Shown: piece by piece, positions 19,321 through 35,290 of the stretch
How the letters are laid out: each line of letters starts with the position of its first letter
Numbering within the stretch: the first letter of the stretch is position 1
NCBI RefSeq assembly: GCF_027922005.1
Contig: NZ_BSEV01000009.1
Span: 270,860-334,859, forward strand
Reading direction: 5' to 3'
Length of the DNA: 64,000 nucleotides
Origin: Streptosporangium carneum
GTDB taxonomy: Bacteria; Actinomycetota; Actinomycetes; Streptosporangiales; Streptosporangiaceae
Program-made: the position numbers and the translations under genes
The notes under the pieces: model-generated
Databases searched by the model: none
What the model was told of the DNA's origin: nothing
What the model saw: the letters and a program-made list of their open reading frames with translations, nothing else

Positions 19321-19821
19321 TCACACCGGGGCGAGCAGGAACAGCGGCTCGCCGTACTCCACCGGCGACCCGTCGGAGACGAGCACCTCGACGACACGGC
19401 CAGGACGGTCGATCTTGACCGCGTTCATCAGCTTCATCGCCTCGACGATCGCCAGCTGCTGGCCTGCCACGATCTCGTCCCCGACGTCGGCGAACGGCGG
19501 CGCGCCGGGGGAGGAGGCGCGGTAGAAGGTCCCGACCAGGGGGGCGTGGACGACGAACGTGCCGTCGTCCTCGGGCGGCACGACCTCACGCGGGTCGGGC
19601 GTCGCGGGCGCGGGAAGGGGCTGGACGACGGCATGCCCGTTCCACGCGGCCTTCCCGTCCGGCCCCCGGCCAGGCTCCGGCCACTCGACCTCGACGGCTA
19701 GGTCGCCCGCCCGCAACCGCACGCTCTTCAGCGGTCCTCCCGCGGCCTCGATGAGACCCGCGGCCTGTCGGCAGAGCTCGTCGATCCCGCTCGGCGCGGT
19801 GACGGTGTCCTCGTCTTTCAT
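19321..19821 (-). CDS. accB: Biotin carboxyl carrier protein of acetyl-CoA carboxylase
   Basis: A 166-residue BCCP. The C-terminal biotinyl domain carries the biotinylation motif EAMKLMNAV, followed by the expected hairpin ([16 protein letters not shown]). A Pro/Gly linker joins it to the helical N-terminus. Its ATG overlaps the accDA stop codon by 4 bases (ATGA), showing tight coupling. Confidence 0.95.
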
Positions 19822-21491
19822 GCGTACCTCGGTATCTCGACGCCGTATCGCCGAAACCGTCGTCGGCGTTGTGCCACCAGGTCGTCAGGAGGGAGGGCGG
19901 TGACCTCGCGCAGGGTCGCGGACAGCGCCTCGCGCAACAGCTCGGCGGCGGCCATGGGATCCCGGTGCGCCCCGCCCTCGGGTTCGGGCACGACGGCGTC
20001 GACGATCCCGTGCCGGAGCAGGTCGCGCGCGCCGACCTGGAGCGCCGCCGCCGCCCTCGGCGCCGCGGAACCGTCCTTCCAGAGGATGGCCGCGCACCCC
20101 TCCGGGCTGATCACCGAGTACATCGCGCCCGCGCAGGCCAGGACCCGGTCCGCCACCGCGAGGGCGAGCGCCCCGCCGCTGCCGCCCTCGCCCGTTATCA
20201 CCGTCACGATCGGGACGGGAAGCCCGGACATGAGCCGGATGCTCTCCGCGATCGCCCACGCCTGGCCCCGCTCCTCCGCTCCGACGCCGGGGTGCGCGCC
20301 GGGCGTGTCGACCAGGGTGACGACCGGCAGGCCCAGCTTGGCCGCCAGCCGCATCAGCCGCGCGGCCTTGCGGTAGCCCTCCGGCAGCGCCATGCCGAAG
20401 TTGCGCTGGACCCGTTCCGGGGTGTCGTGGCCCTTCTGGTGCCCGATGACGACGACCGCCCGGCCGTCGAAGCGCCCGACACCGCCCACGATCGCGGGAC
20501 AGTCGCCGCTGAGCCGGTCGCCCCTCAGTTCCTGGAAGGTGTCCAGCAGCTGGTTCACGTAGTCGAGGGTGGTCGGCCGCTCCTGGTGACGGGCGGTCCG
20601 CACCACCTCCTCCGGGTCCCGTTCCGGCAGCTCGCCGGGATCCCGGACCAGGCGCGTCCGCGTCGCGGGCGCGGAGACCGCGGGTTTCGAGGCGGCGGGC
20701 GCGGGCGCCTGGACGTCGAGAAGAGAGGCGAGCACGGGCCTGAGCGCGACTCGCGGCACCACCGCGTCCACGAGCCCTCTGGCCAGCAGGAACTCGGCCG
20801 TCTGGAAGCCCTCGGGGAGCTCGTGCCTGATCGTCTGCTCGATCACCCTCGGCCCCGCGAACCCGATGCGAGCCCCCGGCTCCGCCAGGATGACGTCGCC
20901 CAGTGTCGCGAAGGAGGCGGCGACGCCGCCGTAGGTGGGGTCGGTGAGCAGCGAGACGGTGAGGATCCCCGCCTCGTCCAGCTCCGCGAGCGCCTGGCTG
21001 GTCTTCGCCATCTGCATCAGCGCCAGGGCGCCCTCCTGCATGCGCGCGCCGCCGGAGGCGGTGACGACGACGAGGGGGGCGCGCGTCCGCAGCGCGGTCT
21101 CCGCGGCCCTCGTCACGGCCTCGCCGACCCCGACGCCGAGGCTGCCGCCCATGAAGCGGAAGTCCATGACCGCCGCCACGACGGGATGTCCCATCAGTGT
21201 GCCCGTGACACAGGTGACCGCCTCCTCGCTCCCCGTCCGCTCGCGCGCCCGGCGCAGCCGTTCCGGGTAGGGGAGGGAGTCCGTGAAACCGAGTGGGTCC
21301 TCCAGGACGGCCGGCCGCTCGAGCGGCCTGACCGAGTCGGCGTCCAGCAACTGCTCGACACGTTGCCGGGCGGTGAGCGGGCTGTGCGCACCGCACCCGG
21401 GGCAGACTCGCAGGTCGCGCTCGAAGCGCCTGCCGTACGTCAGTTCTCGGCACCGGGAACAGCTGACCCACTCGGCCGTTCCGGAAGCCAT
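19818..21491 (-). CDS. accDA: Fused acetyl-CoA carboxylase carboxyltransferase (AccD-AccA)
   Basis: A protein of about 557 residues in which the beta (AccD) and alpha (AccA) carboxyltransferase subunits are fused. The N-terminus has the zinc ribbon ([13 protein letters not shown]...CPGCG). The AccD half contains [23 protein letters not shown]. After a Pro/Ala linker the AccA half begins near 280, with [18 protein letters not shown] and [20 protein letters not shown] choose the ATG at 21491; in-frame TTG and GTG codons up to 21533 are possible starts. Completes a dedicated malonyl-CoA-forming enzyme with accB and accC. Confidence 0.9.
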
Positions 21492-21715: not shown

Positions 21716-23086
21716 TCACCAGACCCGGGGGGATCCGGCGGGGCCGCCGCCCTGGAGCCAGTTGAACTCCCCGGCCACGCGCCTCTTCAGCTTCGGGGTC
21801 TGGTTGGCGACCCGCAGGCGGGTACGGCTGCCCGCCGCGAGCACCGGGCCGATGAACGGCTTGTTCAGGCGGGCCTGGCGGTTGAGGCACTTCCAGTACG
21901 CCAGGAAGTCGAAGCCGGAGCCGAGCGCCTGTGCCTCGTAGTCGCGGATCGCGGCGACGACCGGCCGACGGTCCGCCACGGCCCTGGACAGCAGGCGGCA
22001 CAGCAGTCCGGCGGCGCGGAGCGTCGCGTTCGCCCCCGTGCCCGGGTCGGGGACCCTGACGTGGCCCGCGTCGCCGAGCAGGGTCACCTTCGTCGTCTCC
22101 TGGGAGTCGACGGGGCGCGAGACGACGGCGCGCGTCGCCACCGCCGTGGCCGGATCGGTCAGCTTGACGAGCGTGTGCAGGGCGGGGGACCACCGTCTGG
22201 TCATGTCGGCGACGACGTCGATGAGACGGCTTCCGCCGAGTCCCTCGGGTTCGGCGGGGAACAGGCGCGAGGAGCTCATGAGCCCCCACATGAGGTGATC
22301 CCTGGTGTTGTCGTAGCGCAGCCCGGGCCAGGTTTTGATGAGGGCCGCGTCGACGCCGCCGACGTGGGTCTTCAGCTCCCCCTCGCAGTCCCACCGGAAC
22401 TCCATGGGCTGGGTGACGAGGGAGGGCCCCTGGAGGCTGTGCACCACCGATATCCCACGGAGCATCTCCCAGGGCAGCAGCCGGGCCGCCTCGATGAGGT
22501 CGACCTGCCCGTACGCCGCGACGAAGCCACAGTCCTGGACGCCGTCCCTGGGGCGGCGCTGGTGCCGTACCCGGGAGTGCGAGCCGTCGGCGCCGACCAG
22601 GACGTCACCGACCGTGGAGGTGCCGTCGGCGAAGAAGACGGTTATCCGGCCGTCGGGCCGCCGCTCGTAGCGGAGAAACTCCTTGCCGAACCGCACGGTG
22701 TCCTCGATCCCGGTGAGCAGCAACTGGCGCAGGGTCATGAGGCTGGCGTACCTCATGCCGGGAACGGCCCGCGCGTCCTGTCGGTCCGCCTCCGGAAGAC
22801 CGGTGGTGAACAACTCCTCGAGTCCCTCGGAGTAGACCGTCAGGTGCCGTGGCGACTCGGCGCACGTCGCGACGAAGGTCTCGTAGAGGTCGGGGGGGAG
22901 GGCGTCGCGCAACGCCCGGCTGCCGTCCGGGGCGATCACGACCCGGAAGCCGAACAAGCCGTCGTGCCTGGCTGCCTCCCGTTCGTACACGGCCACGCTG
23001 ATGCCGGCCTTCTTCAGCCCGTGCGCCAGGCACGCGCCGCCGAGGCCCGCTCCGATGATCACAACGTGCAACGCTTGTTCGGACAC
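21716..23086 (-). CDS. FAD-dependent monooxygenase (aromatic hydroxylase type)
   Basis: A protein of about 456 residues of the class A flavin monooxygenase superfamily. It has the dinucleotide-binding GAGLGGACLAHGLKKAG at the N-terminus, the DG motif VLVGADGSHSRVR near 168 and the FAD-ribityl motif GDAGHVRVPDPGTGANATLR near 300. The second motif has HVRVPDP where many relatives have HxxPP. It probably hydroxylates or oxidatively rearranges the polyketide. Starts at a GTG preceded by AAGGAAGG. Separated from the KS-beta gene by about 645 bases, so it may have its own promoter. Confidence 0.87.
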   Translation of the reverse strand: MSEQALHVVIIGAGLGGACLAHGLKKAGISVAVYEREAARHDGLFGFRVVIAPDGSRALRDALPPDLYETFVATCAESPRHLTVYSEGLEELFTTGLPEADRQDARAVPGMRYASLMTLRQLLLTGIEDTVRFGKEFLRYERRPDGRITVFFADGTSTVGDVLVGADGSHSRVRHQRRPRDGVQDCGFVAAYGQVDLIEAARLLPWEMLRGISVVHSLQGPSLVTQPMEFRWDCEGELKTHVGGVDAALIKTWPGLRYDNTRDHLMWGLMSSSRLFPAEPEGLGGSRLIDVVADMTRRWSPALHTLVKLTDPATAVATRAVVSRPVDSQETTKVTLLGDAGHVRVPDPGTGANATLRAAGLLCRLLSRAVADRRPVVAAIRDYEAQALGSGFDFLAYWKCLNRQARLNKPFIGPVLAAGSRTRLRVANQTPKLKRRVAGEFNWLQGGGPAGSPRVW

Positions 23087-23731: not shown

Positions 23732-24889
23732 TCAGGAGGCGGCGCGGCGCACCACCAGGCAGCCGACGTTGCCGTCATCCCCCACGGAGGTCACCAGCGC
23801 CACGGGGCCCACCGCGCCGTCGCGGGGCCGCCACGCCGCGAGCAGGGCGGCGATCTGCAGGGAGCCGCTGGCGCTGAAGCTCTCGCCCATGACGTCGGCC
23901 GTCCTGATCCGGTGGGGCGGCAGGCCGCCGAGGGCGGCGCGGACGCCGTCCTCCTCGGCCGCCCGCAGGCCCCGCAATCCGGTCGCGCCCAGCGAGACCG
24001 TGGTGATCGACTCGGCGGACACGCCGCTGCGTTCCAGGGCGCGCCCGACGCACACGGCCATGCCGCGGCGCAGCCCGGACATGCCCATGGTGCCGACCTC
24101 GCAGGCGAGCAGCTCGGCCAGCGGCGTCCGGCCCGACGCGGCGGCCCCCTCAGGCGTCTCGACGACGAACACGGCGGCCCCCTCGCCGACGGCAGCGTCC
24201 CGTGCGAGCGCGTCCGACAGGTACCACCCCCACGCGGACTGGGGGCACAGTTCCTCGACGGCCCCGACCAGCGCGCGGTCGACGTGCCCCTGGGCGATCG
24301 CGTTGCGGGCGTACCTGACCGCGGCCAGGCCCGATATCCGGCCGTCGGCGATCGTCGCGTTCACGCCGCGAAGGGAGTTCCTGATGGCGATCTGGCTCGC
24401 GCAGAAGTTCATCACCGAGGGCGGGAAGTGATTGGCGCGCACCAGGTACGGTTTCTCCCGCACGAGCGTCTCGCGGGAGAACTCGCTGGAACTGCGGACG
24501 CTGCCGGTGCTGGTCCCCATCACCACGCCGGTCCGCGCGCGGTCCCGGTCCGCCAGCGGCGTGCCGAGCCCCGACAGGGCCAGGGCGCTCGCCACCAGGG
24601 CGAGACGCGTGGTCCGGTCCAGTGAGCGGACCCCTTTGCCCTCCAGGTGCTCCTCCGCCCTGAAGTCCGGTGTCGCGGCCAAAGGGACCGGCGGGAACTC
24701 CCCGCCGATCGCCTCCAGCTCGGCCTCTCCCGGCTGGTGGCCGCCCTCGATCCCGTTCACTGTGCCGTTCACCGTGCCGTTCACCGTGCCGTTCACCATG
24801 TCCGCGAGCGCCTCCAGGCCGACGCCCGCGGGCGAGACGACCCCGCAACCGGTGATCACGAGCGGGGCGAGAGTCGTGGTCGTCGTCAC
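23732..24889 (-). CDS. KS-beta (chain-length-factor-like) subunit, noncanonical
   Basis: A 385-residue ketosynthase-fold protein coupled to the KS-alpha gene by a GTGA overlap. It keeps the fold (PLVITGCGVVSPAG at the start, VVMGTSTGSV, VNFCASQ-like segment, ALVGAVEELCPQSAWGW) but has lost the active site. The Cys position reads DGRISGL (Arg near residue 184), the AHGTGT His is replaced in VSLGATGLR, and the GHTMGA His is replaced by Glu (MGESFSASG). Canonical chain-length factors have Gln at the Cys site. It should pair with KS-alpha and set chain length or priming. A four-unit VNGT repeat near residue 32-46 comes from a 12-bp tandem repeat. Starts at a GTG. Confidence 0.85.
   Translation of the reverse strand: MTTTTTLAPLVITGCGVVSPAGVGLEALADMVNGTVNGTVNGTVNGIEGGHQPGEAELEAIGGEFPPVPLAATPDFRAEEHLEGKGVRSLDRTTRLALVASALALSGLGTPLADRDRARTGVVMGTSTGSVRSSSEFSRETLVREKPYLVRANHFPPSVMNFCASQIAIRNSLRGVNATIADGRISGLAAVRYARNAIAQGHVDRALVGAVEELCPQSAWGWYLSDALARDAAVGEGAAVFVVETPEGAAASGRTPLAELLACEVGTMGMSGLRRGMAVCVGRALERSGVSAESITTVSLGATGLRGLRAAEEDGVRAALGGLPPHRIRTADVMGESFSASGSLQIAALLAAWRPRDGAVGPVALVTSVGDDGNVGCLVVRRAAS
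24755..24800 (-). repeat. 12-bp in-frame tandem repeat in KS-beta
   Basis: Nearly four copies of the unit GTTCACCGTGCC (plus-strand reading) give VNGTVNGTVNGTVNG on the minus strand. It inserts in a surface loop near the N-terminus and keeps the reading frame. Confidence 0.9.
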
Positions 24890-26109
24890 GCGGCCCTCCC
24901 CAGGATCGTGATCGCGTTGTTGCCGCCGAAGGCGAACCCGTGGTTCTGCGCGATCCGCGGCGACGCCGGGCGCCCCCTGCCCGGGACGCAGTCCACCCCG
25001 GGGCCCAGCGCGGGGTCGATCTCCGTCACGTTGGCCGTGGGCGGCAGGAACCCGTCGTACAGCGCCATGCAGCAGATCAGCGCCCCGAAGCCGCTGGCGG
25101 CGCCCATGGTGTGTCCGATCATGGACTTTATCGAGCTGATCGGTGGCAGGCGGTCGCCGAACACCTCGCGCACGGCGCTGACCTCGGTGGCGTCGTTGGT
25201 CGGGGTGCCCGTGCCGTGGGCGCAGATGTAGTCGACGTCCTCGGGGCGCACGCCCGCGTTGTGGTGCGCGGCCCGGATGCACTCCGCGATGCTGGTCGGG
25301 TCCGGCGCGACCGGGTGCTTGGCGTCGCAGTTGACGCCGTAGCCGAGCATCTCGGCGTAGATCCTGGCCCCGCGGGCCACCGCGCTCTCGAGTGGCTCGA
25401 GGAACAGCGCCACACCGCCCTCCGCGGTCAGGATTCCCGAGCGCCTGGTGTCGAACGGCCTGCACACCGACTCGGCCAGAGCCCCGAGCCGGTAGAAGCC
25501 CGCGTGTTCCCACCGGTTGACGGAGTCGGCCCCACCGCCGATCATGAAGTCCGCCTCCCCGGTCCTGACCATGTCGTAGGCGTAGCCCAGCGTGTAGTTG
25601 CTCGCGGAGCAGGCTGTCGCGACCGTGTGGGCCTCGCCGGTGAGCGCGAGCTCGGCGTTGACCGCGACGGCGATCCGGCTGGCCGGAGCCTGACGCACCA
25701 GTGCCGGGTCGAGCTGTTTCATGCCCTCGCGCACCCACTGGCCGGTGAGCGCCTCGACGACCGTGGACTCGCCGAGGGTGGTTCCCATCGCGGAACCGGC
25801 GCGCGCGGCCGAGAGCAGGCCGGGGTCGACGCCCGCGTCCGTCACCGCCAGCCGCGCGGCCGAGGCGGCGAAGAGGCTGCTGCGGCCCCACTGTCCCGTG
25901 CGGAGCCTGCGCAGAATCCGGCCTGGCTCGAAGTCGTGGACCTCGCCCGCGAAGGTGTGGGGGAATCCGGTCGCGTCGAAGCTTCTGATGGGCGACACGC
26001 CGCTGCGTCCCTCACGGATGGCCTCGGTGAAGGCGCGAGCACCCGTTCCGAGGCTGCTCACCGCCCCCAGCCCGGTCACCACCACGCGACGCGACGCCCC
26101 TTCAGGCAT
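24886..26109 (-). CDS. KS-alpha, FabF-like ketosynthase of a noncanonical type II PKS
   Basis: A 407-residue condensing enzyme. The catalytic Cys167 lies in VATACSASNYTLGYAYD, His298 in CAHGTGTPTND, and Lys328 and His333 in SSIKSMIGHTMGAASG. The C-terminal glycine loop is FAFGGNNA. The active-site context (ACSAS, not the GCTSG typical of aromatic KS-alpha) and the gene order ACP, KS-alpha, KS-beta both set it apart from classical aromatic minimal PKSs and nearer to FabF. It elongates malonyl units on the ACP encoded just upstream, which overlaps its start by 8 bases. Confidence 0.9.
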   Translation of the reverse strand: MPEGASRRVVVTGLGAVSSLGTGARAFTEAIREGRSGVSPIRSFDATGFPHTFAGEVHDFEPGRILRRLRTGQWGRSSLFAASAARLAVTDAGVDPGLLSAARAGSAMGTTLGESTVVEALTGQWVREGMKQLDPALVRQAPASRIAVAVNAELALTGEAHTVATACSASNYTLGYAYDMVRTGEADFMIGGGADSVNRWEHAGFYRLGALAESVCRPFDTRRSGILTAEGGVALFLEPLESAVARGARIYAEMLGYGVNCDAKHPVAPDPTSIAECIRAAHHNAGVRPEDVDYICAHGTGTPTNDATEVSAVREVFGDRLPPISSIKSMIGHTMGAASGFGALICCMALYDGFLPPTANVTEIDPALGPGVDCVPGRGRPASPRIAQNHGFAFGGNNAITILGRAA

Positions 26110-26377
26110 CGGTCCCCGCCTCGGGCGCGTATCGGTTCACCAGGCCGAGGACCGCGCTCAGATCGGTCATCTCGGGCAGGGCCTCGCTGGGGATGCAGAC
26201 GCCCATGTCCCGCTCGATGCTGGAGATGATGTCGATGGCCAGCAGCGAGTCGGCGCCGTGGTCGTTCACGAAGTCGCTGGTCTCGGTGAGCTCGTCCGGT
26301 TCGATCTCGAGGACGTCGACGAGGATGTCGCGCAGCTGCCGGACTCGTTCGGACTGGTTCGTTGTCGCTTGGGTCAT
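26102..26377 (-). CDS. Acyl carrier protein of the noncanonical PKS cassette
   Basis: A 91-residue four-helix carrier. The phosphopantetheine Ser is in GADSLLAIDI (Ser near residue 44), flanked by FVNDHGADS and acidic helix II (SIERDMGVCIPSEAL). It carries the growing chain for KS-alpha/KS-beta. Its stop overlaps the KS-alpha start by 8 bases, so the three are made together. It differs clearly from the second ACP at the right edge of the window. Confidence 0.95.
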   Translation of the reverse strand: MTQATTNQSERVRQLRDILVDVLEIEPDELTETSDFVNDHGADSLLAIDIISSIERDMGVCIPSEALPEMTDLSAVLGLVNRYAPEAGTDA

Positions 26378-26441
26378 CGCGCTTCCTTCTCTTTACGTCT
26401 TTCGCCGGGCTCTTCACGTCTTTCACCGGGGCTGACACGTC

Positions 26442-27473
26442 TCAGCGAGGGGCCGGCACGCTCTCCGCCGCCGAGGCCTCCTCGAGAGCCTGGTAGATCA
26501 TCTGCGCGGCCTGCCGGTTTCCCTCGTCCGTGAAGTGCACGGTGTCGGCGAAGGAGTCGCCGACGAAGAGGTCGGCCGACAGGTTCACGAAGGACACCCC
26601 CAGGTCGGCGCAGCCTTTGGCCAGCAGGGCGGCGTAGGAGTCCCAGTTGTTCTCGATGGCGCTGTGCAGGATGCCGAAAACGGGGGCGTCGAAGTCGTAG
26701 CGCTCCTTTTCCTGCACGGTGAGCGCGCGCGTGCGGGAGCTCACGAACGGCTGGAGACAGAAGAGGATCCGGGTCCGGTCACCGGCGGCCCTGGACAGGA
26801 ACGCCAGGTCGCGCAGTCGTCTGCGGGCGGCGGTCTCCATGCGGGGCAGGGTGTCCGCGATGGTCCACGGGGAGGGTTTCCCCTGCGGGCGCCTGCGGGA
26901 GTCGAGGTCGTCAAGTGGCCTGCCCGTCGCGAGCGTCGCGAGGTCGAACAGCGGCAGCCGCGTCAGCTCCGCGAACGTGCGCTCGTAGGACACGGCGCCG
27001 AACACGCTGTCCGGGGTCAGGGAGCCCACCAGGTTGACGAAGTCCGGCCCCCCGCCGATGATCACCACCGTGGACGCGGCGTGCAGGAACGGCAGCGCGG
27101 CCACCACCTCCTGAAGGGAGACCGCCGCGCAGAGACCCAGGTTGAGCTGCCGGGTTCCGGTGAGGAAAGCCAGGTGGGAGGCCGGGGTCGCGCTGTCCGA
27201 GCTCGCCGCGAGGCCGATCGCCACCGAGTTGCCGAGCACGATCCCTCCTCCGCCCGAGGAGAGCCAGGTGGCGCTGTCAACCGTGCCGAACGGCGAGTCG
27301 GAGAGGCGGAAGCCCTCGTCGTCGGTGTTGAGCACGGCTGAACGGTGCCCGGGGGCGAGGGTGAACCCCAGGAAGGGATGGGGGTAGAGGTCGAGGCCGT
27401 GCCTCTCGAGCAGCATCCCGCCGCGGTGCCGCTGGGCGAAGGATTCGTGTTCGAACTTAGGGGAGGAATTCAT
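26442..27473 (-). CDS. SGNH/GDSL-like hydrolase
   Basis: A 343-residue protein with the blocks of the SGNH hydrolase fold: nucleophile region IVLGNSVAIGL (Ser in GNSVA, near residue 75), block III GGGPDFVN with its Asn, and the C-terminal DxxH motif as DTVHFTDEGN near 316. No signal peptide, so cytoplasmic. The first gene of the ACP-KS cassette, with a GGGAG ribosome site 8 bases before the ATG. It could release, edit or transfer an acyl chain from the ACP. Acyltransferase or thioesterase function is inference from position. Confidence 0.75.
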   Translation of the reverse strand: MNSSPKFEHESFAQRHRGGMLLERHGLDLYPHPFLGFTLAPGHRSAVLNTDDEGFRLSDSPFGTVDSATWLSSGGGGIVLGNSVAIGLAASSDSATPASHLAFLTGTRQLNLGLCAAVSLQEVVAALPFLHAASTVVIIGGGPDFVNLVGSLTPDSVFGAVSYERTFAELTRLPLFDLATLATGRPLDDLDSRRRPQGKPSPWTIADTLPRMETAARRRLRDLAFLSRAAGDRTRILFCLQPFVSSRTRALTVQEKERYDFDAPVFGILHSAIENNWDSYAALLAKGCADLGVSFVNLSADLFVGDSFADTVHFTDEGNRQAAQMIYQALEEASAAESVPAPR

Positions 27474-27822: not shown

Positions 27823-29178
27823 TCATGACCGGACGGCGGCGCCCGTCGCGACGCGTTCGAGCTCGCGCCCGACCTCCTCGGGTGAGGGCTGGCCGTGCAT
27901 CTCCCGCCGCAGCCGTTCCGCGGCGGTCCGGTAGCCGGGGACGGCCAGCAGTTCGGACAACCCGTCCCTGATCGTCTCCGGTGACGAGGCCGACGCCGGG
28001 AGCACGACGCCCGCGCCCGCCTCGGCGAGCCTGCCCGCGTGACGCACGTGGTCGGGCAGCCGCGGCAGGAGAAGCTGCGGCAGGCCGTGGGCCAGCGCGG
28101 TCAGCAGCGTGCCCGCGCCACCGTGGGCGACCACGAGGTCGCACGAGGGCAGCAGCAGGTGGAGCGGCGCGGACTCCACGACGTGCGCCCGGGGCGGCAG
28201 CGGGCCGAGCAGCTCCCGCTGACCCGGTGTGACCGCGACCACCACGTCCACCTCGAGGTCGCCGATCGCCCGTGCCACCTGACCGGCGAGGAACAGCCCG
28301 GGGTCCACGCGGCTCATGGTCGTGCCCCAGGTGACGCACACGCGCGGACGGCCCGAGGGGCGTGGGAGCTCCGGCGGCAGCGTGCCGGGGCCGTTGTGCG
28401 GGACGTACCGCATCGGCAGCCGCCGGGAGCCGACGGGCACCTGCAGCCCGGCGGGGCACGGGTCGACGGTGGCCACGCCGAACGGGTCGACGGCCCGCAG
28501 GCCCAGTCTCTCGCGCAGCGGGTCCAGCGCTGCCGGGAGGAACCGGCCGACGACGCTCATGAGGTCGGTGCCGTACAGGTGCCGTACGGCGGGAACGCCC
28601 AGCACGGCCGCCGCCAGCGGCCCGGCGAAGGCCGTGGGCTCGAACACGACGAGGTCCGCCCGCCATCTCCGGCCGAGCTCGACGAGATCGTCGACCATGG
28701 CGTCGGCCAGGGCGGTCAACAGCCCGAGGACGCGAGGCCCGCCTCCGCCCGGTCCTCCGGCAGGCGTTCCGCCCGGTCCTCCGGCAGGCGTTCCGCCCGG
28801 TCCTCCGTTCGCCCCGCCGCCAAGCGTTCCCCCAGGCTCGCCGCTCCGCCGTCGCCCGGGCGGAGGCGGTGCGACGTCCCCGGGCGGTGCGATGTCCCCG
28901 GGCGGTGCGATGTCCCCGGGCGGTGCGATGTCCCCGGGCGGTGCGATGTCCCCGGGCGGTGCGATGTCCCCGGGCAGTGCGATGTCCCTGAAGGTCGCGA
29001 CCGCGTCCACGTCGCGGCCCACCGGCGCGGCGGGCAGGCCGGTGCGCAGGATCGTTTCCGTGAGTTCGGGCTGGCTCGCGACCAGCACGTCGTGTCCGCC
29101 GGCCCGGCACGCCCAGGCGAGGGGAACCATCGCATACAGATGTGACGGCCACGCCCAGGTGGTGAATAGTACGCGCAT
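27823..29178 (-). CDS. Glycosyltransferase, GT1 (antibiotic type)
   Basis: A 451-residue GT-B glycosyltransferase of the natural-product group related to DesVII/EryCIII. The N-terminal domain starts MRVLFTTWAWPSHLYAMVPLAWA. The C-terminal nucleotide-sugar domain has HGGAGTLLTALAHGLPQLLLPRLPDHVRHAGRLAEAG. A low-complexity insert of roughly 80 residues after FRD contains seven copies of APPGDI-like hexapeptides and Gly/Pro-rich repeats; relatives lack this. No nucleotide-sugar biosynthesis genes or P450-like activator are next to it. Probably glycosylates the polyketide. Divergent from the transporter pair. Confidence 0.87.
   Translation of the reverse strand: MRVLFTTWAWPSHLYAMVPLAWACRAGGHDVLVASQPELTETILRTGLPAAPVGRDVDAVATFRDIALPGDIAPPGDIAPPGDIAPPGDIAPPGDIAPPGDVAPPPPGRRRSGEPGGTLGGGANGGPGGTPAGGPGGTPAGGPGGGGPRVLGLLTALADAMVDDLVELGRRWRADLVVFEPTAFAGPLAAAVLGVPAVRHLYGTDLMSVVGRFLPAALDPLRERLGLRAVDPFGVATVDPCPAGLQVPVGSRRLPMRYVPHNGPGTLPPELPRPSGRPRVCVTWGTTMSRVDPGLFLAGQVARAIGDLEVDVVVAVTPGQRELLGPLPPRAHVVESAPLHLLLPSCDLVVAHGGAGTLLTALAHGLPQLLLPRLPDHVRHAGRLAEAGAGVVLPASASSPETIRDGLSELLAVPGYRTAAERLRREMHGQPSPEEVGRELERVATGAAVRS
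28746..28808 (-). repeat. 24-bp in-frame tandem repeat in the glycosyltransferase gene
   Basis: About 2.6 copies of a 24-bp unit encode Gly-Gly-Thr-Pro-Ala-Gly-Gly-Pro on the minus strand, downstream of the hexapeptide array in the same insert. Confidence 0.85.
28865..28990 (-). repeat. Seven 18-bp in-frame tandem repeats in the glycosyltransferase gene
   Basis: Seven units of GGCGGTGCGATGTCCCCG (plus-strand reading), almost identical, encode APPGDI hexapeptides on the minus strand. Period is exact and in frame. Near-identity suggests recent expansion. Confidence 0.95.
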
Positions 29179-29301: not shown

Positions 29302-30288
29302 ATGGCGGAGCTCACGATCGAGGCGTGTGGACTGGTCAAACGTTTCGGCGGGAAGGCGGCTCTGGCCGGGCTCGATCTCACGGTCGAACCGGGACGGGTG
29401 GTCGCGGTCCTGGGGCCGAACGGGGCGGGGAAGACGACGTTCGTCAGGGCGGTGGCGACGCTGTTGCGCCTCGACGGCGGTGTGCTGCGGGTCGCGGGCC
29501 TCGACGTGCGGCGTCGGCCCGAGGCGGTCCGTCGCGCTATCGGGCTCGCGGGCCAGTTCGCCTCGGTCGAACCCGCCATGACCGGGCGGGAGAACCTGGA
29601 GATGGTGGCGCGGCTGTACGGCCAGCGGGCCCGCACCGCCCGCGCCGGCGCCGCCGACGTCCTCGAGCGCTTCGGCCTCACGGCGGACGCCGACCGGCTG
29701 GCACGGACCTATTCCGGAGGGATGCGCCGCAAACTGGACCTGGGCGCCAGCCTGGTGAGCAGGCCCCGCCTGCTGCTGCTGGACGAGCCGACGACCGGGC
29801 TCGACCCGCGCTCCCGCGTCGAACTGTGGGACGCGATCGACGGGCTCGTCGACCAGGGGACCGACGTGCTGCTCACCACCCAGTACCTGGACGAGGCGGA
29901 GCGCCTGGCCGGCCACGTCGTCATCGTCGACCGCGGACGCGCGGTGGCCTCCGGGCCTCCCGCCGAACTGAAACGGCGGGTCGGCGGCAGCGTGCTGGAG
30001 GTGCGCGCGCGGGACCGCGCCGACCTGGCGAGGATCGCCTCCGCCCTCGCCGGGCTCGGCCACGCGGAACCGCGGGTCGACGAGGCCACCCGTCGCGTCA
30101 GCGTGGGCACGGTCGAGGAGACGGCCGCGAGAGGCCTGGCCGCCGGACTGCGGGCCGTCGAGGACGCGGGGGCGGAACCGCTCGAGATCGGCGTGCGGCA
30201 GCCCACGCTCGAAGAGGTGTTCCTCGCGCTGACCGGAGGGGAGACGCCGGTCACGGCGGCGGGCGCGTCCACCGGGGTGACGCGGTGA
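29302..30288 (+). CDS. ABC transporter ATP-binding protein, DrrA type
   Basis: A 328-residue ATPase with Walker A GPNGAGKTT near 38, Q-loop near 85, signature SGGMRRKLDLGASL and Walker B LLLLDEPTTGLD. The long C-terminal region (YLDEAERLAGHVVIVDRG then a divergent domain) is characteristic of the daunorubicin-resistance DrrA group. Starts at an ATG after GAGGTG. Its stop overlaps the permease reading frame. With the permease it should export the final product and protect the producer. Confidence 0.93.
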   Translation: MAELTIEACGLVKRFGGKAALAGLDLTVEPGRVVAVLGPNGAGKTTFVRAVATLLRLDGGVLRVAGLDVRRRPEAVRRAIGLAGQFASVEPAMTGRENLEMVARLYGQRARTARAGAADVLERFGLTADADRLARTYSGGMRRKLDLGASLVSRPRLLLLDEPTTGLDPRSRVELWDAIDGLVDQGTDVLLTTQYLDEAERLAGHVVIVDRGRAVASGPPAELKRRVGGSVLEVRARDRADLARIASALAGLGHAEPRVDEATRRVSVGTVEETAARGLAAGLRAVEDAGAEPLEIGVRQPTLEEVFLALTGGETPVTAAGASTGVTR

Positions 30289-30308: not shown

Positions 30309-31112
30309 ATGACCGCTGCCGGGGCCTCGCGCGGGGCCACCCTGCCGATCGCCACGATGCTCGTCGCCAGGCGAGCCGTGCTGACCTTCCTGCGGACGCC
30401 CCAGCTCGTCGTCCTCGGCACCGTGCAGCTCGTGGGCTTCCTGATGACCTTCCGCTACGTCTTCGGCGGCGCGTTCGACACCCGGGGAGGCCTGTCGTAC
30501 GTCGACTTCGCCGTTCCCGGCTTCGTCGCCGCCGGGGTGCCCTTCACGCTCATCGGCACGGCCGTGGTGATGGCCGAGGACCTCCAGAGGGGGTTCGTCG
30601 ACCGCCTGCGCTCGCTGCCGTTCCCGTCCGCGGCGGTGCTGGCCGGGCGGGTGCTCGCCGACGGCGTGGTGCTCGCGTGGAGTCTGGCGATCGCCACACT
30701 GACCGGGTTCGCCATCGGTTTCCGGCCGCACGGCTCGGTCCCGCAGGCGCTGGCGGCCTTCGGGCTGTGCCTGGTGTTCGGGCTCGCCTTCAGCTGGGTC
30801 TTCATCACACTCGGCCTGCTCGCCGGAAACGGCCAGGCGGCGCAGGGGATGGCGATGCTCGTCTTCCCGCTGACCTTCGGGTCGAGCGCGTACGTGCCCG
30901 TCGAGACCATGCCGGACTGGCTGCGCGCGTTCGCGGACAACCAGCCGGTCACGTGGATGGCCAACGCCGTACGGGCTCTCACCCTCGGCGACCACGCACG
31001 GCGTTTCCTCGGCCACGACGCCGCGTACTACGTCACGGGCTCTCTGGTGTGGGCCGTCGTCATCATGGTCGTGTTCTTCTGTCTGGCCGTGGCCCGGTTC
31101 CGGCGAGGCTGA
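30309..31112 (+). CDS. ABC transporter permease, DrrB type
   Basis: A protein of about 267 residues of the ABC-2 family with six predicted membrane segments. A central loop reads MAEDLQRGFVDRLRSLPFPSAAVLAGRVLADG, a hallmark of the DrrB/NodJ permeases, and the periplasmic FGSSAYVPVETMPDWLRAFADNQPVTWM is also typical. I chose the ATG at 30309 because GGAAGG lies five bases upstream; an in-frame GTG at 30285 overlapping the ATPase stop is possible. Confidence 0.92.
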   Translation: MTAAGASRGATLPIATMLVARRAVLTFLRTPQLVVLGTVQLVGFLMTFRYVFGGAFDTRGGLSYVDFAVPGFVAAGVPFTLIGTAVVMAEDLQRGFVDRLRSLPFPSAAVLAGRVLADGVVLAWSLAIATLTGFAIGFRPHGSVPQALAAFGLCLVFGLAFSWVFITLGLLAGNGQAAQGMAMLVFPLTFGSSAYVPVETMPDWLRAFADNQPVTWMANAVRALTLGDHARRFLGHDAAYYVTGSLVWAVVIMVVFFCLAVARFRRG

Positions 31113-31177
31113 CGGCGAGGCTTCGGTGGGGTCTCTGGGCTGGTTTGGTTCTTTTGGTTCTTTTGGTTCTTTTGTTC

Positions 31178-31308
31178 GCGTGGAGGGGGGCGGGTGGTCC
31201 GGCCGGCCGTCTCAGCTGAGCTCTGGTGAGATCAGGCCTCCGGCCTGGCGGGCGTCGGTGGTTGCGGTCCTTTTATACGCCGGCCGGACCACCCGCCCCC
31301 CTCCACGC
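31178..31308. mobile_element. MITE-like element with 30-bp perfect inverted repeats
   Basis: Bases 31178-31207 and 31279-31308 are perfect reverse complements (30/30; outer end GCGTGGAGGGGGGCGGGTGG) around a 71-base centre. There is no open frame inside. This fits a miniature inverted-repeat transposable element. I see no clear target-site duplication. A very strong hairpin terminator for the upstream transporter is the other reading. Confidence 0.55.
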
Positions 31309-31401
31309 ACGGCTGCCCCGCCGTACGACGCGCGGACCGTAGTCGCTTCCTTTCCGGCCGCCCATTCATCCCTGGGCGGCTGAAGCAATCCGCAGGGGTT
31401 T

Positions 31402-31464
31402 CATCCACGGTGGGCCTCCCGTTGCCCACCCCATGATTGTTGCCCAGAGCACTCCGAAATCCTT
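31402..31464 (-). repeat. Diverged inverted repeat, left copy
   Basis: Read on the minus strand, this matches 35299-35362 at roughly 50 of 64 positions (shared core GCTCTGGGCAAC). The two copies face each other across the mobile island. Confidence 0.65.
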
Positions 31465-31638
31465 GGGCGGCCCTGCTCGCCTGAGGCGACGATCCTCGAA
31501 CAAAGCGATATTTCTCAGACAGAGCGACATTCCTAAGAGGTCGCGCAGACAGGCGTGCTGGTGCTACCCCGGCAGTAAGACAGGCACAGGTCCTGGCGAT
31601 CATGGAGTTGTGACGCTCTGTGACCACCGGGGAGACCT

Positions 31639-32158
31639 GTGCCTGTGCTTCCGTCATGGCTGACCGAACCACTCGGGGGCCGATTCGCCGCTCTGTTGTC
31701 CGAGCGGCCGACCTACGCGGCGACTCATCCGCTGGGCTGCCACCGCCCACGCATCACCGACCGGATCGTCTTCGACAAACCGTCACGACTCTCCGCTGCT
31801 CGCCCCGGCCCTGGACCGCCTGGACGACCTGGGACCGCTGCCCGACGACGTCACCGTGCACCTGGACGTCTGCTACGACTCCGACAAGACCCGCGCCCTC
31901 CTCGACGAACGCGGCCTGCACGGCCGCATCGCACACAAGGGCGAGAAGGCGCCCGTCCAGGCAAGCTGGAGGTGGCACGTCGAACGCACCCACGCCTGGC
32001 AGAACGCCTTCTGCCGGATCGCCCGCTGCTACGAGCGGCACGCCACCGTCGTCGACGCATTCTTCGACCTCGCCGACACGATCATCACCGTGCGCAGTCT
32101 GATCCGTCAGGCATGGACGACTCACCGCTGGGACGGACGCCCGAATCGCCGACCATGA
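31639..32158 (+). pseudogene. IS5-family transposase, internally deleted
   Basis: The N-terminus (MPVLPSWLTEPLGGRFAALL ... RITDRIVFDK) and the C-terminus (HDSPLLAPALDRLDD ... TVHLDVCYDSDKTRALLDERG ... WHVERTHAWQNAFCRIARC ... LIRQAWTTHRWD) of a typical actinobacterial IS5-type transposase are both present but in different frames. They are joined near 31783, where I estimate about 400 bases of the middle are missing, including the first catalytic Asp. The C-terminal half from 31856 reads open. Not functional. Confidence 0.85.
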
Positions 32159-32182
32159 TCGCACCCCTACCCGTACAGTCTC

Positions 32183-32809
32183 CTACAGCCCCGGGTAGAA
32201 GCCCGGAGAGCCCAGCTGCTCGAACCAGCTCGGTGGCTCAGGCGCGGTGAACGCGTTGGTCATCGCGTCCAGCCAGGCAGCGAACGTGGGGAAGTCCGGG
32301 GTGGAGTTGGCCAGGTCCTCCCAGTCCCCGCCCTCAACGTAGCGTGCGTGCCCTTCCTGATCGTCGTAGTGGTGGTAGTAGACCGGATATTCGCCGTCTG
32401 CGTCCGGCTGGGTGACATCGAAGCACCAGACCGCCTCGTTGTCCGCGTCGGCGAGGGCGAAGCCGACCAGGTGGTTGGTGGACAGCCACCGGCCGTCGCC
32501 GCGGTCCACATGCTCGGGCATGTGCACGAGATCGGAGTTCAGCTCAACGATGGCATCGTCGCCGACGACGACGAACTCGATGTACCCGTTGGATGAGACG
32601 TCCCAGCGCTTACAGGCAAAGGTGTTGTGCTCGGCGAGGAAAGCCCGGTAGCCGGGCGGAGCCGTCCAGTCGACGGTTCCGAAATGGGGCTTCAGCCCTG
32701 TCTCGCGGTCGCGGACGGCTTCGGCGGAGGCGGGCTCCGACGCCGTGATGATGACCGTTCCGGCTTCGGCGGCGCGGTGAAGGATTGCCAGACTCTCGTG
32801 TATCGACAT
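32183..32809 (-). CDS. SMI1/KNR4 (SUKH) family protein
   Basis: A 208-residue protein of the SUKH superfamily by pattern: GTVDWTAPPGYRAFLAEHNTF near residue 45, FVVVGDDAIVELNSDL, then a region rich in Asp, Trp and Tyr, and the C-terminal DFPTFAAWLDAMTNAF helix. Such proteins often act as immunity proteins against secreted nuclease toxins, but no toxin gene is nearby. Start taken at the ATG at 32809. It lies within mobile-DNA remnants, so it may be an acquired orphan. Confidence 0.7.
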   Translation of the reverse strand: MSIHESLAILHRAAEAGTVIITASEPASAEAVRDRETGLKPHFGTVDWTAPPGYRAFLAEHNTFACKRWDVSSNGYIEFVVVGDDAIVELNSDLVHMPEHVDRGDGRWLSTNHLVGFALADADNEAVWCFDVTQPDADGEYPVYYHHYDDQEGHARYVEGGDWEDLANSTPDFPTFAAWLDAMTNAFTAPEPPSWFEQLGSPGFYPGL

Positions 32810-33174
32810 CGCGGTCCTTGATCGGGTGATCGTACGGCTACGTAGGCGTGGCCCGACAACTGTAGGTGCCTGATTGTGGCCGGTGAGAGCGATCGGCGGG
32901 ATCCGTAGAGCTGCACAAGGCGATGACGTATTCAATTACGCAGCGTCACGTTCGAGAACCCCAGCGGCCCGAACCCGCCCGCCTGGCTCCCAGCCGCCCG
33001 CAACCGATACGCAAGATCGTTCACCTATTGGTGGAGGGGCCGGCCCGCGCGATGCTGGGAACGCCGACATGTTCGTCATCTCACGCGAGGGCCGCGACAG
33101 CGGCCCCGCCTCCGCTCCCCGGCCGGACGACGCCGGGCGGGGGACGGAGAACGGCCGGTTCCTCATCCGCCACC
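32810..33174. other. Divergent intergenic region
   Basis: About 365 bases between the SUKH gene and the next gene on the opposite strand. It should carry promoters for both. I see no recognisable operator or RNA. Confidence 0.4.
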
Positions 33175-34317
33175 ATGGGAGCCTTCATGATCATGACGCC
33201 GGAGGCCTTCGCGGTCTCGGACGAGTTCCGGCGCGGGCTGCGCACGCTGGCCCTGTCCCGCGACCCCCGCGACGTCAGGCCGCTGGCTGCGCTGGTGTCC
33301 GCCTACTACGCCGCGGACCGGCATCCCTACAAGATCCGTGATCTGGCCGCGTTGCTGGCCGTTCGGGAAAGGCCCTTCGATTCGAGGAACCCGCTGTACG
33401 ACGAGTGGGAGCCGGTACTGGACAAGTTGATGCTCGAGGAGTGGGAGCCGGTGCTGGGCCTGCTGCCCCTCTTCGAGCGCGTACCCGCCAAGCCCGGCGT
33501 ATGGGCGGAGCTGATCGCCTGCCTGACACAGGAACTGGTGTTGCTCGGTGCCGACCTGACTCGCGTACCGGCGGCGCTGCGCTGCGCGGCCGCCCTGCGA
33601 AAGCAGGGCCACCCCCTGGCCAGGCTGCCCCTGCGACTCTCCCGGGGGGAGGGAAACAGGCTGAACAGGCATTCGTGCTCCGTCCGCGGCTGGGAGCCCC
33701 ACCATTCCCACTACTACCTCAGGGAGGAAACGGAGATCGAGAAGAAAACGACGTTCCCCCTCCCCGGATGGGATGCGCGCTCCTCGCGCGGGGGCTTTGG
33801 GCACGGCGAGCCCCGGCGCGTGAGCACTCCGGGGCAGGAGCGACTCATCGCCGCCGCGGTGGAGCACTGGGGCCCGCCGTACCTGGCGATGACCATCGAG
33901 CTTCCCCGGCGTTTCGAACCCGGGGAGATGAGGTCACCGGCCGTGAACGCGCTGCTGCCGGGCTGGTGCGGGAGGGAGATCAGGCTGAAGGGACATCCGG
34001 CCACCCTGAAGGAGGCGTTCGCCGAGCTGTTCTACAACGCCTGCTGCGATGTCCGCCATGTCCGAGGCTTCCGTGGCGGGTACGCCAGGATGAAGGCGTG
34101 GCAGTCGGTCGCGGGACTCGTCCGCGCCCCCGCCCAGGCGTCCGCGCACCGGATCGGCAGGATCGCCACCCGGTGGCGGTGGACGATGTTCACCCTCGTC
34201 GAACAGCGGCAGGACTACTCAAGGGATGGGATGATCTCGATCGGCGCGCTCAGCCCCGGAGGGGACAAGGTGAGCTTGCTGATCTCCCTCTCGAAGTGGG
34301 CCCATTGGAACCGCTAA
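33175..34317 (+). CDS. Unrecognised protein, possibly truncated by an IS
   Basis: A protein of about 380 residues, largely helical with basic patches, that I do not recognise with confidence; it may belong to a DUF family of Streptomyces-type proteins. Visible features are paired tryptophan-containing repeats (DEWEPVLDKLMLEEWEPVLGLL), a conserved-looking HSCSVRGWEPHHSHYYLREE and LFYNACCDVRHVRGF. No catalytic motif is evident. The stop codon lies exactly at the edge of the IS5-type element, so the natural C-terminus may have been removed. Start chosen at the ATG at 33175; ATGs at 33187 and 33193 are possible. Confidence 0.55.
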   Translation: MGAFMIMTPEAFAVSDEFRRGLRTLALSRDPRDVRPLAALVSAYYAADRHPYKIRDLAALLAVRERPFDSRNPLYDEWEPVLDKLMLEEWEPVLGLLPLFERVPAKPGVWAELIACLTQELVLLGADLTRVPAALRCAAALRKQGHPLARLPLRLSRGEGNRLNRHSCSVRGWEPHHSHYYLREETEIEKKTTFPLPGWDARSSRGGFGHGEPRRVSTPGQERLIAAAVEHWGPPYLAMTIELPRRFEPGEMRSPAVNALLPGWCGREIRLKGHPATLKEAFAELFYNACCDVRHVRGFRGGYARMKAWQSVAGLVRAPAQASAHRIGRIATRWRWTMFTLVEQRQDYSRDGMISIGALSPGGDKVSLLISLSKWAHWNR

Positions 34318-35139
34318 CGCAATGAGCTGAGGCGGCGCCGGCAGATCAAGGCGCAGCCGAGGCTGAGGAAGGCTTCGTGGATGTCGGCGCGCACCTCCCA
34401 GCGGATACGCAGTCGACGGAAGTGGTGCAACAAGGCAAAGGCCTGCTCGACGACCCAGCGGTGTTTGCCCAGGCCGGAGCCGTGCTCGGTGCCGCGTCGG
34501 GCGATCAGCGGGCGAATGCCCAAGCCGCGGACCTGCTTGCGGTACTTGTCGTGGTCGTAGCCGCGGTCGGCGAGGACGACATCGGGGCGCCGACGCGGCC
34601 GGCCGCGCTTGCCGCGCACCGGCGGGACGGCCTCCAGAAGCGACATCAGCTGGGTGACGTCGCCCGCGGTTGCCGCCAGTCACAATTGCCGCCAGCGGGA
34701 TGCCGGTGGCGTCGCTGATCAGCTGGTGTTTGCTGCCGGATCGTCCCCGATCGACCGGCGACGGGCCGGTCTGCGCCCCCCTTTTTAGGGCTCTGACGTG
34801 GGAGGAGTCCACCGAAGCCCGGGAGAGGTCGATCGCTCCTGCCGCGCGCAGCCGGGCCAGGAGCACCTCGTGCAGGCGCTGCCAGACACCGGCCTTGTGC
34901 CACTCGTTCAGCCGCCGCCAGCACGTCATGCCCGAGCCGTACCCGAGTTCCTGCGGCAGGTGTTCCCAGGAGATCCCGGTGTGCAGCACGAACAGCACAC
35001 CCTGCAGGGCCAGACGGTCATCCAGGCGCTTTCGCCCTGGCCAGCGGGCTCGCCGCTGATGTTTGGGCAGCAGGGGCTCGATGATCGCCCACAGCTCGTC
35101 GCCGACCTCCCACGGCTTCAGCCGCGCCAACCCGCTCAC
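34314..35139 (-). mobile_element. IS5-family insertion sequence with frameshifted transposase
   Basis: The minus strand encodes an IS5/IS427-type transposase in two frames. The first part (MSGLARLKPWEVGDELWAIIEPLLPKHQ ... ASVDSSHV ... DRGRSGSKHQLISDATGIPLAAIVTGGNR) carries the first catalytic Asp. The second (VVLADRGYDHDKYRKQ ... KHRWVVEQAFALLHHFRRLRIRWE) carries the second Asp and the Glu. The break is near 34662-34668, where one extra G appears after the GGNR codons. In this group two overlapping frames are often joined by programmed frameshifting, so it may still be active. Exact ends are not resolved; the downstream edge is near 34313 and the upstream one near 35150. Confidence 0.85.
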
Positions 35140-35203
35140 CTCTCCCGCTGTCGTTACAGCGAGAGATCAAACCACAACGGAGATCATTCTGTTAGGAGCT
35201 ATA

Positions 35204-35290
35204 AGGCAGGACGATATTTCTCGACCTCTCGGGCAGAGTGACATTTCCAAGGCGGGATGATGCTTCTCGGGCAGGGCGATACTTCTCGGG
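35204..35290 (+). repeat. Degenerate repeat array with a GAYATTTCTC core
   Basis: Four related blocks with cores GATATTTC (35213), GACATTTC (35240), GATGCTTC (35259) and GATACTTC (35278), each preceded by a GGGCAG-like motif, lie 19-27 bp apart. Two more copies (GATATTTC near 31507 and GACATTCC near 31525) lie at the other end of the island. Function unknown. Confidence 0.55.

What the first reader, a model, noticed from the sequence alone, without database searches (positions are those of the whole stretch)
23732..27473. A second, noncanonical type II PKS cassette inside an aromatic polyketide cluster
The window holds an SGNH-ACP-KS-alpha-KS-beta cassette with overlapping genes. Its order (ACP first) and its FabF-like active-site context (ACSAS) differ from classical aromatic minimal PKSs. 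The right edge separately shows the tail of a classical aromatic ACP next to a TcmN-like cyclase. So one locus seems to encode two type II PKS systems, the first perhaps making a starter unit or side chain for the second. I see no dehydratase or FabH-type priming enzyme in the window, so the product of the first system is hard to guess.
Basis: partly seen in the sequence, partly recalled or inferred. Interest (0 to 1): 0.85.

Follow-up and report, generated by a model that had tools for sequence, protein, structure and literature searches.

The report
Extra chain-builder inside aromatic polyketide cluster
A gene cluster for a multi-ring aromatic compound also carries a second, differently descended set of chain-building enzymes, fitted with its own carrier, reductase and probable transfer enzyme, which most likely makes a small acyl group that decorates the main molecule.

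Summary
The cassette is real: on the minus strand, SGNH esterase, ACP, KS-alpha and KS-beta follow a glycosyltransferase. The classical minimal PKS lies just past the right edge. In trees the two KS pairs separate: the cassette pair belongs to the ishigamide-type (Iga11/Iga12, "highly reducing") type II clade, the other to the actinorhodin-type clade. It is not FabF.

(1) The ~55 kb cluster, cassette included, recurs in several actinobacterial genera; in Micromonospora thermarum SGNH and ACP are one fused ORF, and the KS pair is a different Iga-type pair. (2) A ketoreductase of the clade that serves Iga-type PKSs sits 41 kb away, beside the classical PKS. (3) The FabA-like dehydratase of such systems was not found in the cluster, nor anywhere in the 7 cassette or SGNH-ACP genomes searched.

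Best reading: a ketoreducing, non-dehydrating type II PKS makes a short (probably beta-hydroxy) acyl-ACP, which SGNH transfers to the glycosylated aromatic product. Kinship of the enzymes is well supported; product and acceptor are inferred. A starter-unit role is less likely but not excluded.

The parts
26442..27473 (-). SGNH serine esterase/acyltransferase, proposed off-loading enzyme of the cassette
   Evidence: CgnD (8a2n) E 6e-9; S83, D310, H313 invariant in 13 of 13 sequences; fused to an ACP in M. thermarum
26102..26377 (-). dedicated ACP (GADSL phosphopantetheine site)
   Evidence: PF00550 E 9e-12; distinct from the classical ACP
24886..26109 (-). KS-alpha, Iga11-type, Cys-His-Lys-His intact
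   Evidence: 6kxd_A E 3e-111; tree; motifs
23732..24889 (-). KS-beta/chain-length factor, Iga12-type, Arg at the Cys position (IADGR)
   Evidence: 6kxd_B E 6e-40; tree; joint KS-alpha/KS-beta alignment
27823..29178 (-). GT1-type glycosyltransferase, neighbour of SGNH in 9 of 9 assessable loci; carries a low-complexity repeat not seen in four orthologues compared
   Evidence: PF21036/PF06722; synteny; repeat
21716..23086 (-). FAD-dependent monooxygenase, conserved downstream neighbour in L016, L018, L019
   Evidence: PF01494; synteny
19818..21491 (-). fused acetyl-CoA carboxylase carboxyltransferase (AccD+AccA), malonyl-CoA supply
   Evidence: TIGR00515 and NF004344 over cut-off
19321..19821 (-). 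biotin carboxyl carrier protein
   Evidence: PF00364
17911..19281 (-). biotin carboxylase; left edge of the conserved cluster
   Evidence: PF02786/PF00289/PF02785; synteny ends here in L016 and L018
29302..31112 (+). ABC transporter, two genes (29302-30288 ATPase, 30309-31112 permease)
   Evidence: PF00005, PF01061
63378..63860 (-). polyketide cyclase of the classical aromatic system
   Evidence: PF03364
63922..64000 (-). C-terminal part of the classical ACP; the gene, KS-beta, KS-alpha and the distal ketoreductase (L001 8662-9402, about 4.7 kb past the edge) continue on the contig

Best explanation
The cassette is the condensing core of a second type II PKS, related by descent to the ishigamide-type (highly reducing) KS/CLF family, built into one conserved cluster with a classical aromatic type II PKS. 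Shown by sequence: dedicated ACP; KS-alpha with Cys-His-Lys-His; KS-beta with Arg in place of the Cys; a KR from the Iga-type KR clade 41 kb away; no FabA-like dehydratase found in the cluster or in any of 7 genomes searched; a cluster-encoded acetyl-CoA carboxylase; an SGNH enzyme tied to both the GT and the ACP. Inferred mechanism: KS/CLF condenses malonyl units on its own ACP for one or a few rounds, the KR reduces the beta-keto group, and chains stay undehydrated (for example a 3-hydroxyacyl group). SGNH takes the acyl group from the ACP onto its serine and transfers it to a hydroxyl of the sugar or aglycone, giving an acylated glycoside.
For: Iga11/Iga12 are the best solved-structure matches. 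KS-alpha and KS-beta trees place the cassette in the Iga-type clade, apart from the aromatic pair and, for KS-alpha, FabF. Active sites. KR: nested in 19 rows of cluster and HR-type KRs at 99/98, against 24 other SDRs of the same genome, three FabGs and SiaM; orthologue in 6 of 6 cassette clusters whose relevant region was held. Dehydratase: PF07977 in 0 of 7 genomes versus 8 of 9 genomes with other HR-type loci. SGNH fused to ACP in M. thermarum. GT next to SGNH in 9 of 9 assessable loci. Whole-cluster conservation. SGNH domains are thought to do the final sugar-acyl transfer in OatA/OafA-type enzymes (PMC9558356, passages).
Against: No product is known to me for any of these clusters. The closest solved SGNH relative, CgnD, is a slow leader-peptide-removing hydrolase (PMC10070186, passages), so SGNH may hydrolyse rather than transfer. 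Streptacidiphilus keeps GT-SGNH without ACP-KS-KS on the 68 kb contig stretch read, so SGNH may not need the cassette's acyl group. M. thermarum has an Iga-type KS pair but no orthologue of the KR in the cluster stretches read. No NDP-sugar genes were seen among the genes scanned. HadAB/MaoC-type dehydratases of primary metabolism could act in trans and were not tested. G287 and N. cypriaca were not in the dehydratase search.
Confidence: 0.5

Rival explanations
1. The cassette makes a non-acetate starter unit that primes the classical aromatic KS/CLF; SGNH edits the ACP by removing wrong primers.
For: Both systems are conserved together. A polycyclic xanthone with an unusual lipid chain, actinomadurone, is known from Actinomadura (PMC9327801, passages). 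The KR lies beside the classical PKS.
Against: No FabH-type priming KS or acyltransferase among the cluster genes scanned by Pfam. SGNH is tied to a glycosyltransferase in 9 of 9 assessable loci and survives in Streptacidiphilus without the cassette on the stretch read.
Confidence: 0.2
2. The cassette makes an unsaturated or polyene acyl side chain as in ishigamide, with dehydration supplied in trans (primary HadAB, or in this strain the paralogous C21 locus).
For: Clade membership and a KR of that kind; the C21 locus carries HadA-like and MaoC dehydratases.
Against: No FabA-like dehydratase in 7 of 7 genomes searched. Five other cassette genomes (G189, G071, G009, G141, G148) show only one Iga-type CLF at the threshold and with the five candidates scored, hence no C21 paralogue seen there.
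Confidence: 0.2
3. SGNH is a plain thioesterase or product esterase; the acyl acid is released free, or the KS pair is vestigial.
For: CgnD is a hydrolase; Streptacidiphilus lacks the linked cassette on the stretch read.
Against: Catalytic residues of KS-alpha are intact in 8 of 8 cassette members aligned; M. thermarum has another Iga-type pair in its place.
Confidence: 0.08
4. The cassette is an unrelated neighbour that merely abuts the aromatic cluster.
For: It lies near the left edge of the cluster.
Against: Cassette and classical PKS occur in one conserved block in S. canum and Microtetraspora, and rearranged in G141, M. thermarum and Actinomadura.
Confidence: 0.02

Closest known systems
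Ishigamide highly reducing type II PKS (Iga10 ACP, Iga11 KS, Iga12 CLF; PDB 6kxd-6kxf)
   Same: KS-alpha (49% identity) and KS-beta (35%) are nearest to Iga11/Iga12 among solved structures; Arg210 and Thr303/Thr305 of Iga11 (noted in PMC7949117, passages) are matched in the alignment; Arg at the CLF's Cys position in both; KR of the clade found beside Iga-like loci (Iga's own KR was not in the tree)
   Different: no FabA-like dehydratase found; SGNH enzyme attached; embedded in an aromatic cluster; KR far away
Pachycephalamide-associated KS-CLF plus KR pair (PMC11446937, passages)
   Same: KS-CLF with a KR and proposed to give hydroxylated, non-dehydrated acyl chains
   Different: there a second KS-CLF with DH and ER is proposed to act first, and the acceptor is an NRPS; the route is a hypothesis of that paper
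AfsA-linked ACP-KS-alpha-KS-beta loci, including the paralogue on contig C21
   Same: nearest large group in the tree: a 28-row KS-alpha clade (100/99) holds 8 cassette rows, 19 AfsA-linked rows and L094; C21 paralogue 71% (KS-alpha) and 54% (KS-beta) identical
   Different: partner is an AfsA-domain protein, usually with HAD phosphatase and KR, some with HadA/MaoC dehydratases; no SGNH. L094, which is the closest single KS-alpha outside the cassette group (75%), has no AfsA label and an unscanned hydrolase-looking ORF
Cispentacin AmcF-AmcG (PMC10698177, passages)
   Same: KS-like pair of HR kinship making a small non-aromatic acyl group on an ACP
   Different: NF058662 score 173.8 against a cut-off of 325
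Crocagin hydrolase CgnD (8a2n)
   Same: the only solved-structure sequence match of SGNH, E 6e-9
   Different: acts on a RiPP leader peptide; here tied to ACP and GT

Membership tests
Highly reducing (ishigamide-type) type II PKS | KS-alpha in the Iga11 clade with Cys-His-Lys-His | tested here: met
Highly reducing (ishigamide-type) type II PKS | CLF in the Iga12 clade without active Cys | tested here: met
   (Arg at the Cys position in 8 of 8 cassette members)
Highly reducing (ishigamide-type) type II PKS | dedicated ACP | tested here: met
Highly reducing (ishigamide-type) type II PKS | KR of the family in the cluster | tested here: met
   L001 8662-9402, 41 kb from the cassette; not found in the M. 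thermarum cluster
Highly reducing (ishigamide-type) type II PKS | dehydratase (FabA-like) making the chain olefinic | tested here: not met
   not found in the cluster loci nor in 7 of 7 genomes; control 8 of 9. Note that two Iga-like loci, L101 and L102, also lack it in the locus
Highly reducing (ishigamide-type) type II PKS | polyene product | not testable with these tools
   no product known
Classical aromatic minimal PKS | KS pair in the actinorhodin-type clade | tested here: not met
   cassette outside; the neighbouring pair L001 4146-6679 meets it. Gln at the CLF Cys position does not discriminate: it also occurs in many HR-type CLFs
FabF (fatty acid KASII) | NCBIfam fabF cut-off; FabF clade | tested here: not met
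   339 bits against 493.75; outside
Cispentacin AmcF acyltransferase subunit | NF058662 cut-off | tested here: not met
   173.8 against 325 bits
SGNH hydrolase superfamily | Ser and Asp-x-x-His catalytic residues | tested here: met
   S83, D310, H313 invariant in 13 of 13
SGNH hydrolase superfamily | three-dimensional SGNH fold | tested here: inconclusive
   AlphaFold models of low confidence, pLDDT 45.7 and 37.2

The most novel reading that the evidence does not exclude
A split, ketoreducing-only type II PKS (ACP, KS-alpha, KS-beta at one end of the cluster, its KR at the other) hands a hydroxyacyl chain through an ACP-coupled SGNH acyltransferase to a glycosylated aromatic polyketide: two distantly related type II PKS lineages cooperating in one cluster, with a new off-loading enzyme for such systems.
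Probability: 0.4. Interest if true: 0.72.

Novelty: new variant of a known kind. Interest (0 to 1): 0.57.

Why it matters
Iga-type type II PKSs are described from polyene and lipopeptide-type clusters (papers seen in passages). Finding one conserved inside an aromatic type II cluster, with an SGNH enzyme coupled to its ACP and without the usual dehydratase, would extend what discrete type II systems make and how they unload. It also warns genome miners that reducing-type CLFs can be hidden inside aromatic clusters and that a PKS's own reductase can lie 40 kb away. It makes a defined, testable prediction: an acylated glycoside of a highly oxidised aromatic polyketide in Streptosporangium and relatives.

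Tried and rejected
Rejected: FabF or classical aromatic origin of the cassette (trees and scores). Rejected: that no reductase exists for the cassette. Considered and dropped: that M. thermarum shares one ACP between both systems. The 60 kb first read held no classical ACP, but one lies just beyond, at C29:97238-97474. Considered: SDR5 as merely another aromatic-cluster or FabG KR, because its best solved matches are SiaM and FabG proteins with nearly equal scores; with SiaM, three FabGs and 24 own-genome SDRs in the tree it still nests among HR-type KRs. The first SDR tree lacked most of these controls and was not relied on alone. Corrected on checking: I had read Asp as the residue at the Cys position of KS-beta from a KS-beta-only alignment (also in my notebook); a joint alignment shows Arg there, with the Asp two residues earlier.

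Led nowhere: AlphaFold models of SGNH (9 sequences, pLDDT 45.7) and of the SGNH-ACP fusion (single sequence, pLDDT 37.2) were too poor for a fold search, so none was run. Literature: searches found no paper holding all terms; some searches gave listings. Nine papers were opened, all by passages only; no passage I saw described this cassette. That is a statement about those ten searches of an open-access library. What entry 9s5h is was not established. The product of the aromatic system was not identified; 'pentangular/xanthone-like' is inference from gene content and recalled knowledge.

Limits: several loci are draft contigs; L020 and L022 hold incomplete KS-beta; gene starts come from a simple home-made caller and labels are best blastp hits to window, L001 and L002 genes. 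Tree rows were taken by filter: KS-alpha over 50% identity and over 330 residues, KS-beta at least 34% and over 300 residues. The cassette KS-alpha clade itself has 89/96 support, below the tool's starred level. The tool warned of long branches: M. thermarum KS-alpha, Iga11, 9s5h_B, FabF and the C26 KS; L091_b8 (which joins the aromatic side), Iga12 and M. thermarum KS-beta. One search scored only five candidates per genome, so counts of CLFs per genome are lower bounds. The G298 list was cut.
Full report
Setting. The window is contig C9:270860-334859 of a 9.84 Mb genome. Two genomes of the same genus (G189, G071) hold the SGNH relatives on contigs of the same length as those of Streptosporangium canum and S. 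minutum, so the host is, by inference, a Streptosporangium.

Observation. The four genes are present as described, all on the minus strand. ACP/KS-alpha and KS-alpha/KS-beta overlap by 8 and 4 bp; SGNH and ACP are 64 bp apart. Base composition of the stretch (72.5% GC at 24-26 kb) is like its surroundings. The classical minimal PKS expected past the edge is present: ACP L001 3922-4182, KS-beta 4146-5414, KS-alpha 5411-6679, with actinorhodin KS and CLF as the best solved matches (E 5e-190 and 2e-145).

What the KS pair is. For the cassette KS-alpha the best solved match is Iga11 (375 bits), ahead of 9s5h_B (310), FabF proteins (up to 253) and actinorhodin KS (181). For KS-beta it is Iga12 (141 bits), ahead of 9s5h_C (70), a FabF (57) and actinorhodin CLF (47). 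In a 49-row KS-alpha tree the seven labelled cassette rows and the G141 row form one clade (89/96) inside a 42-row clade with Iga11 (100/99); two FabFs, the own-genome KS of contig C26 and three aromatic KS-alphas lie outside. A 49-row KS-beta tree agrees: cassette 8 rows (100/100), aromatic 3 rows apart (100/100), though one long-branched HR-locus row, L091_b8, joins the aromatic side. KS-alpha keeps Cys, His, Lys and His in 8 of 8 cassette members; ACSAS occurs widely in this sub-clade. In a joint alignment KS-beta has Arg where KS-alpha has Cys in 8 of 8 cassette members, as in Iga12; the classical CLFs have Gln, but so do many HR-type CLFs, so this residue does not separate the two kinds. 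An Asp two residues earlier is found in 7 of 8 cassette members (A. roseirufa has Gly).

Closest relatives. Among 31 HR-type loci fetched (L075-L104 and L114), 18 carry an AfsA-domain gene in the locus with ACP-KS-alpha-KS-beta; so does the own paralogue on contig C21, which also has HadA-like and MaoC dehydratases. The KS-alpha clade around the cassette (28 rows, 100/99) holds 8 cassette rows, 19 AfsA-linked rows and L094, which has no AfsA label and is the closest single KS-alpha (75%). The cassette looks like a branch of this group that works with SGNH instead of AfsA.

Conservation. SGNH at 69-84% identity was found in 6 of 296 other genomes drawn from the family; three more genomes have only distant matches of 28-33%. 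A cassette-type KS-beta at 66-82% identity was found in 7 of 344 other genomes of the order. All six SGNH genomes are among the seven; the seventh, G304, has a contig matching in length and position the N. cypriaca locus L020, which does hold SGNH. A scan of named genomes gave eight loci: two Streptosporangium, Microtetraspora, a Sphaerisporangium MAG, Nonomuraea, Micromonospora, Actinomadura and Streptacidiphilus. GT is the immediate neighbour of SGNH in 9 of 9 loci whose contig reaches far enough (window, L016-L021, L023, G141; L022 cannot be judged). SGNH is followed by ACP, KS-alpha and KS-beta in 8 of 10. The two exceptions are informative. In M. thermarum SGNH and ACP are one 471-residue ORF, and the KS pair, on the other strand, groups with Iga11 and not with the cassette (99/94, on a long branch). 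In Streptacidiphilus GT-SGNH and many tailoring genes occur without ACP-KS-KS, and without an aromatic PKS, among the labels on the 68 kb read; its draft genome has aromatic PKS and HR-type KS genes on other contigs.

One cluster. From AccC (window 17911) to a DUF1772 gene (L001 12734), about 55 kb, gene order is shared with S. canum and Microtetraspora, apart from local differences; nothing beyond AccC matches in either. In G141 most of the same genes occur in a partly different order, and orthologues of the neighbouring FAD enzyme and carboxylase genes were not among the labels. Aromatic KS genes lie 32-39 kb from the cassette in G189, G009 and G141 and about 1 kb from the KS pair in M. thermarum. 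The cluster also holds an Asn-synthase-type amidotransferase, halogenase-like FAD enzyme, P450, O-methyltransferases, luciferase-like monooxygenases and a SARP-type (BTAD) regulator. A highly oxidised pentangular or xanthone-like product is inferred from this, not shown.

The hidden reductase. One SDR near the classical PKS (L001 8662-9402, contig 339521-340261, 41 kb from the cassette) is unlike the other cluster SDRs. In a 57-row tree with 24 control SDRs of the same genome, three FabGs and SiaM, it and 4 cluster orthologues sit inside the KRs of HR-type loci (19 rows, 99/98), next to those of L101-L103 (8 rows, 100/98). Orthologues at 77-84% identity occur in the cassette clusters of S. canum, G141, G009, Sphaerisporangium and Actinomadura, so in 6 of 6 with the own copy; S. 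minutum and N. cypriaca could not be judged. The best SDR has 37% identity in the M. thermarum cluster and at most 41% on the Streptacidiphilus contigs C163, C137 and C126; a 52% relative there belongs to a separate HR-type locus on C107.

The missing dehydratase. The dehydratase pair of HR-type locus L098 is FabA-like, PF07977. tblastn with such proteins finds no convincing relative in the cluster loci searched; the one dehydratase match under 0.01, HadA-type, in L109 at E 0.002, falls in a carboxyltransferase-like ORF. PF07977 is absent from 7 of 7 genomes (own, five other cassette genomes, M. thermarum); G287 and N. cypriaca were not searched. The same search finds it in 8 of 9 genomes with other HR-type loci; in seven of those eight at least one match lies within the HR locus fetched. 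G687 has none and G577 only one elsewhere, so loci with KR but no FabA-like dehydratase exist outside this family too, and they are the nearest KR relatives. HadAB-type enzymes were not tested.

Mechanism. Shown: kinship of the parts, intact catalytic residues, co-conservation, SGNH-ACP fusion. Inferred: KS/CLF and KR make a short hydroxyacyl-ACP and SGNH transfers it to the glycoside. KS-CLF with KR alone has been proposed, not proven, to give polyhydroxylated chains (PMC11446937, passages). SGNH domains are thought to perform the last transfer to sugars in OatA/OafA-type proteins (PMC9558356, passages), though CgnD, the nearest solved relative, hydrolyses.

Verdict. The KS/CLF belongs by descent to the highly reducing type II family, but the system fails that family's dehydratase criterion; it is best filed as a new variant. 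The finding is real and more coherent than first described; the product remains unknown.

Noticed in passing
L002 3922-12181 (own contig C21): A second Iga-type ACP-KS-alpha-KS-beta locus with AfsA-domain protein, HAD phosphatase, SDR, SnoaL, PQQ-repeat protein and HadA-like plus MaoC dehydratases; AfsA-linked loci of this kind were 18 of 31 HR-type loci fetched. This looks like a widespread type II PKS feeding an AfsA-type (butyrolactone-like) condensation.
   Followed up: partly
window about 28730-28985 (GT N-terminal region, minus strand): The glycosyltransferase carries an in-frame low-complexity expansion (repeated DIAPPG, then Gly/Pro-rich) missing from the four orthologues compared.
   Followed up: partly
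window 31113-35493: About 4.4 kb between the ABC permease and the SchA/CurD gene, with ORFs that look like transposase fragments by eye (not searched) and a DUF6183 gene, where S. canum has about 240 bp: an apparent insertion in this strain.
   Followed up: no
L012-L015: Distant SGNH relatives (28-33% identity) in other genera; in L012, L013 and L015 they stand next to similar-looking ORFs that I did not identify, and no KS gene was evident in the short flanks held.
   Followed up: no
L021 and L137: In M. thermarum the classical ACP has left its usual place between KS-beta and cyclase and lies near the other end of the cluster (C29:97238-97474).
   Followed up: yes
L101, L102: Loci with an Iga-like KS pair and KR beside a giant ORF of about 2500 aa, without FabA-like dehydratase in the locus: possible relatives of a KR-only type II PKS.
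   Followed up: partly
window 50279-50476: Small ferredoxin-like ORF (by eye) similar to small ORFs of HR-type loci (37% identity), perhaps a P450 partner.
   Followed up: no
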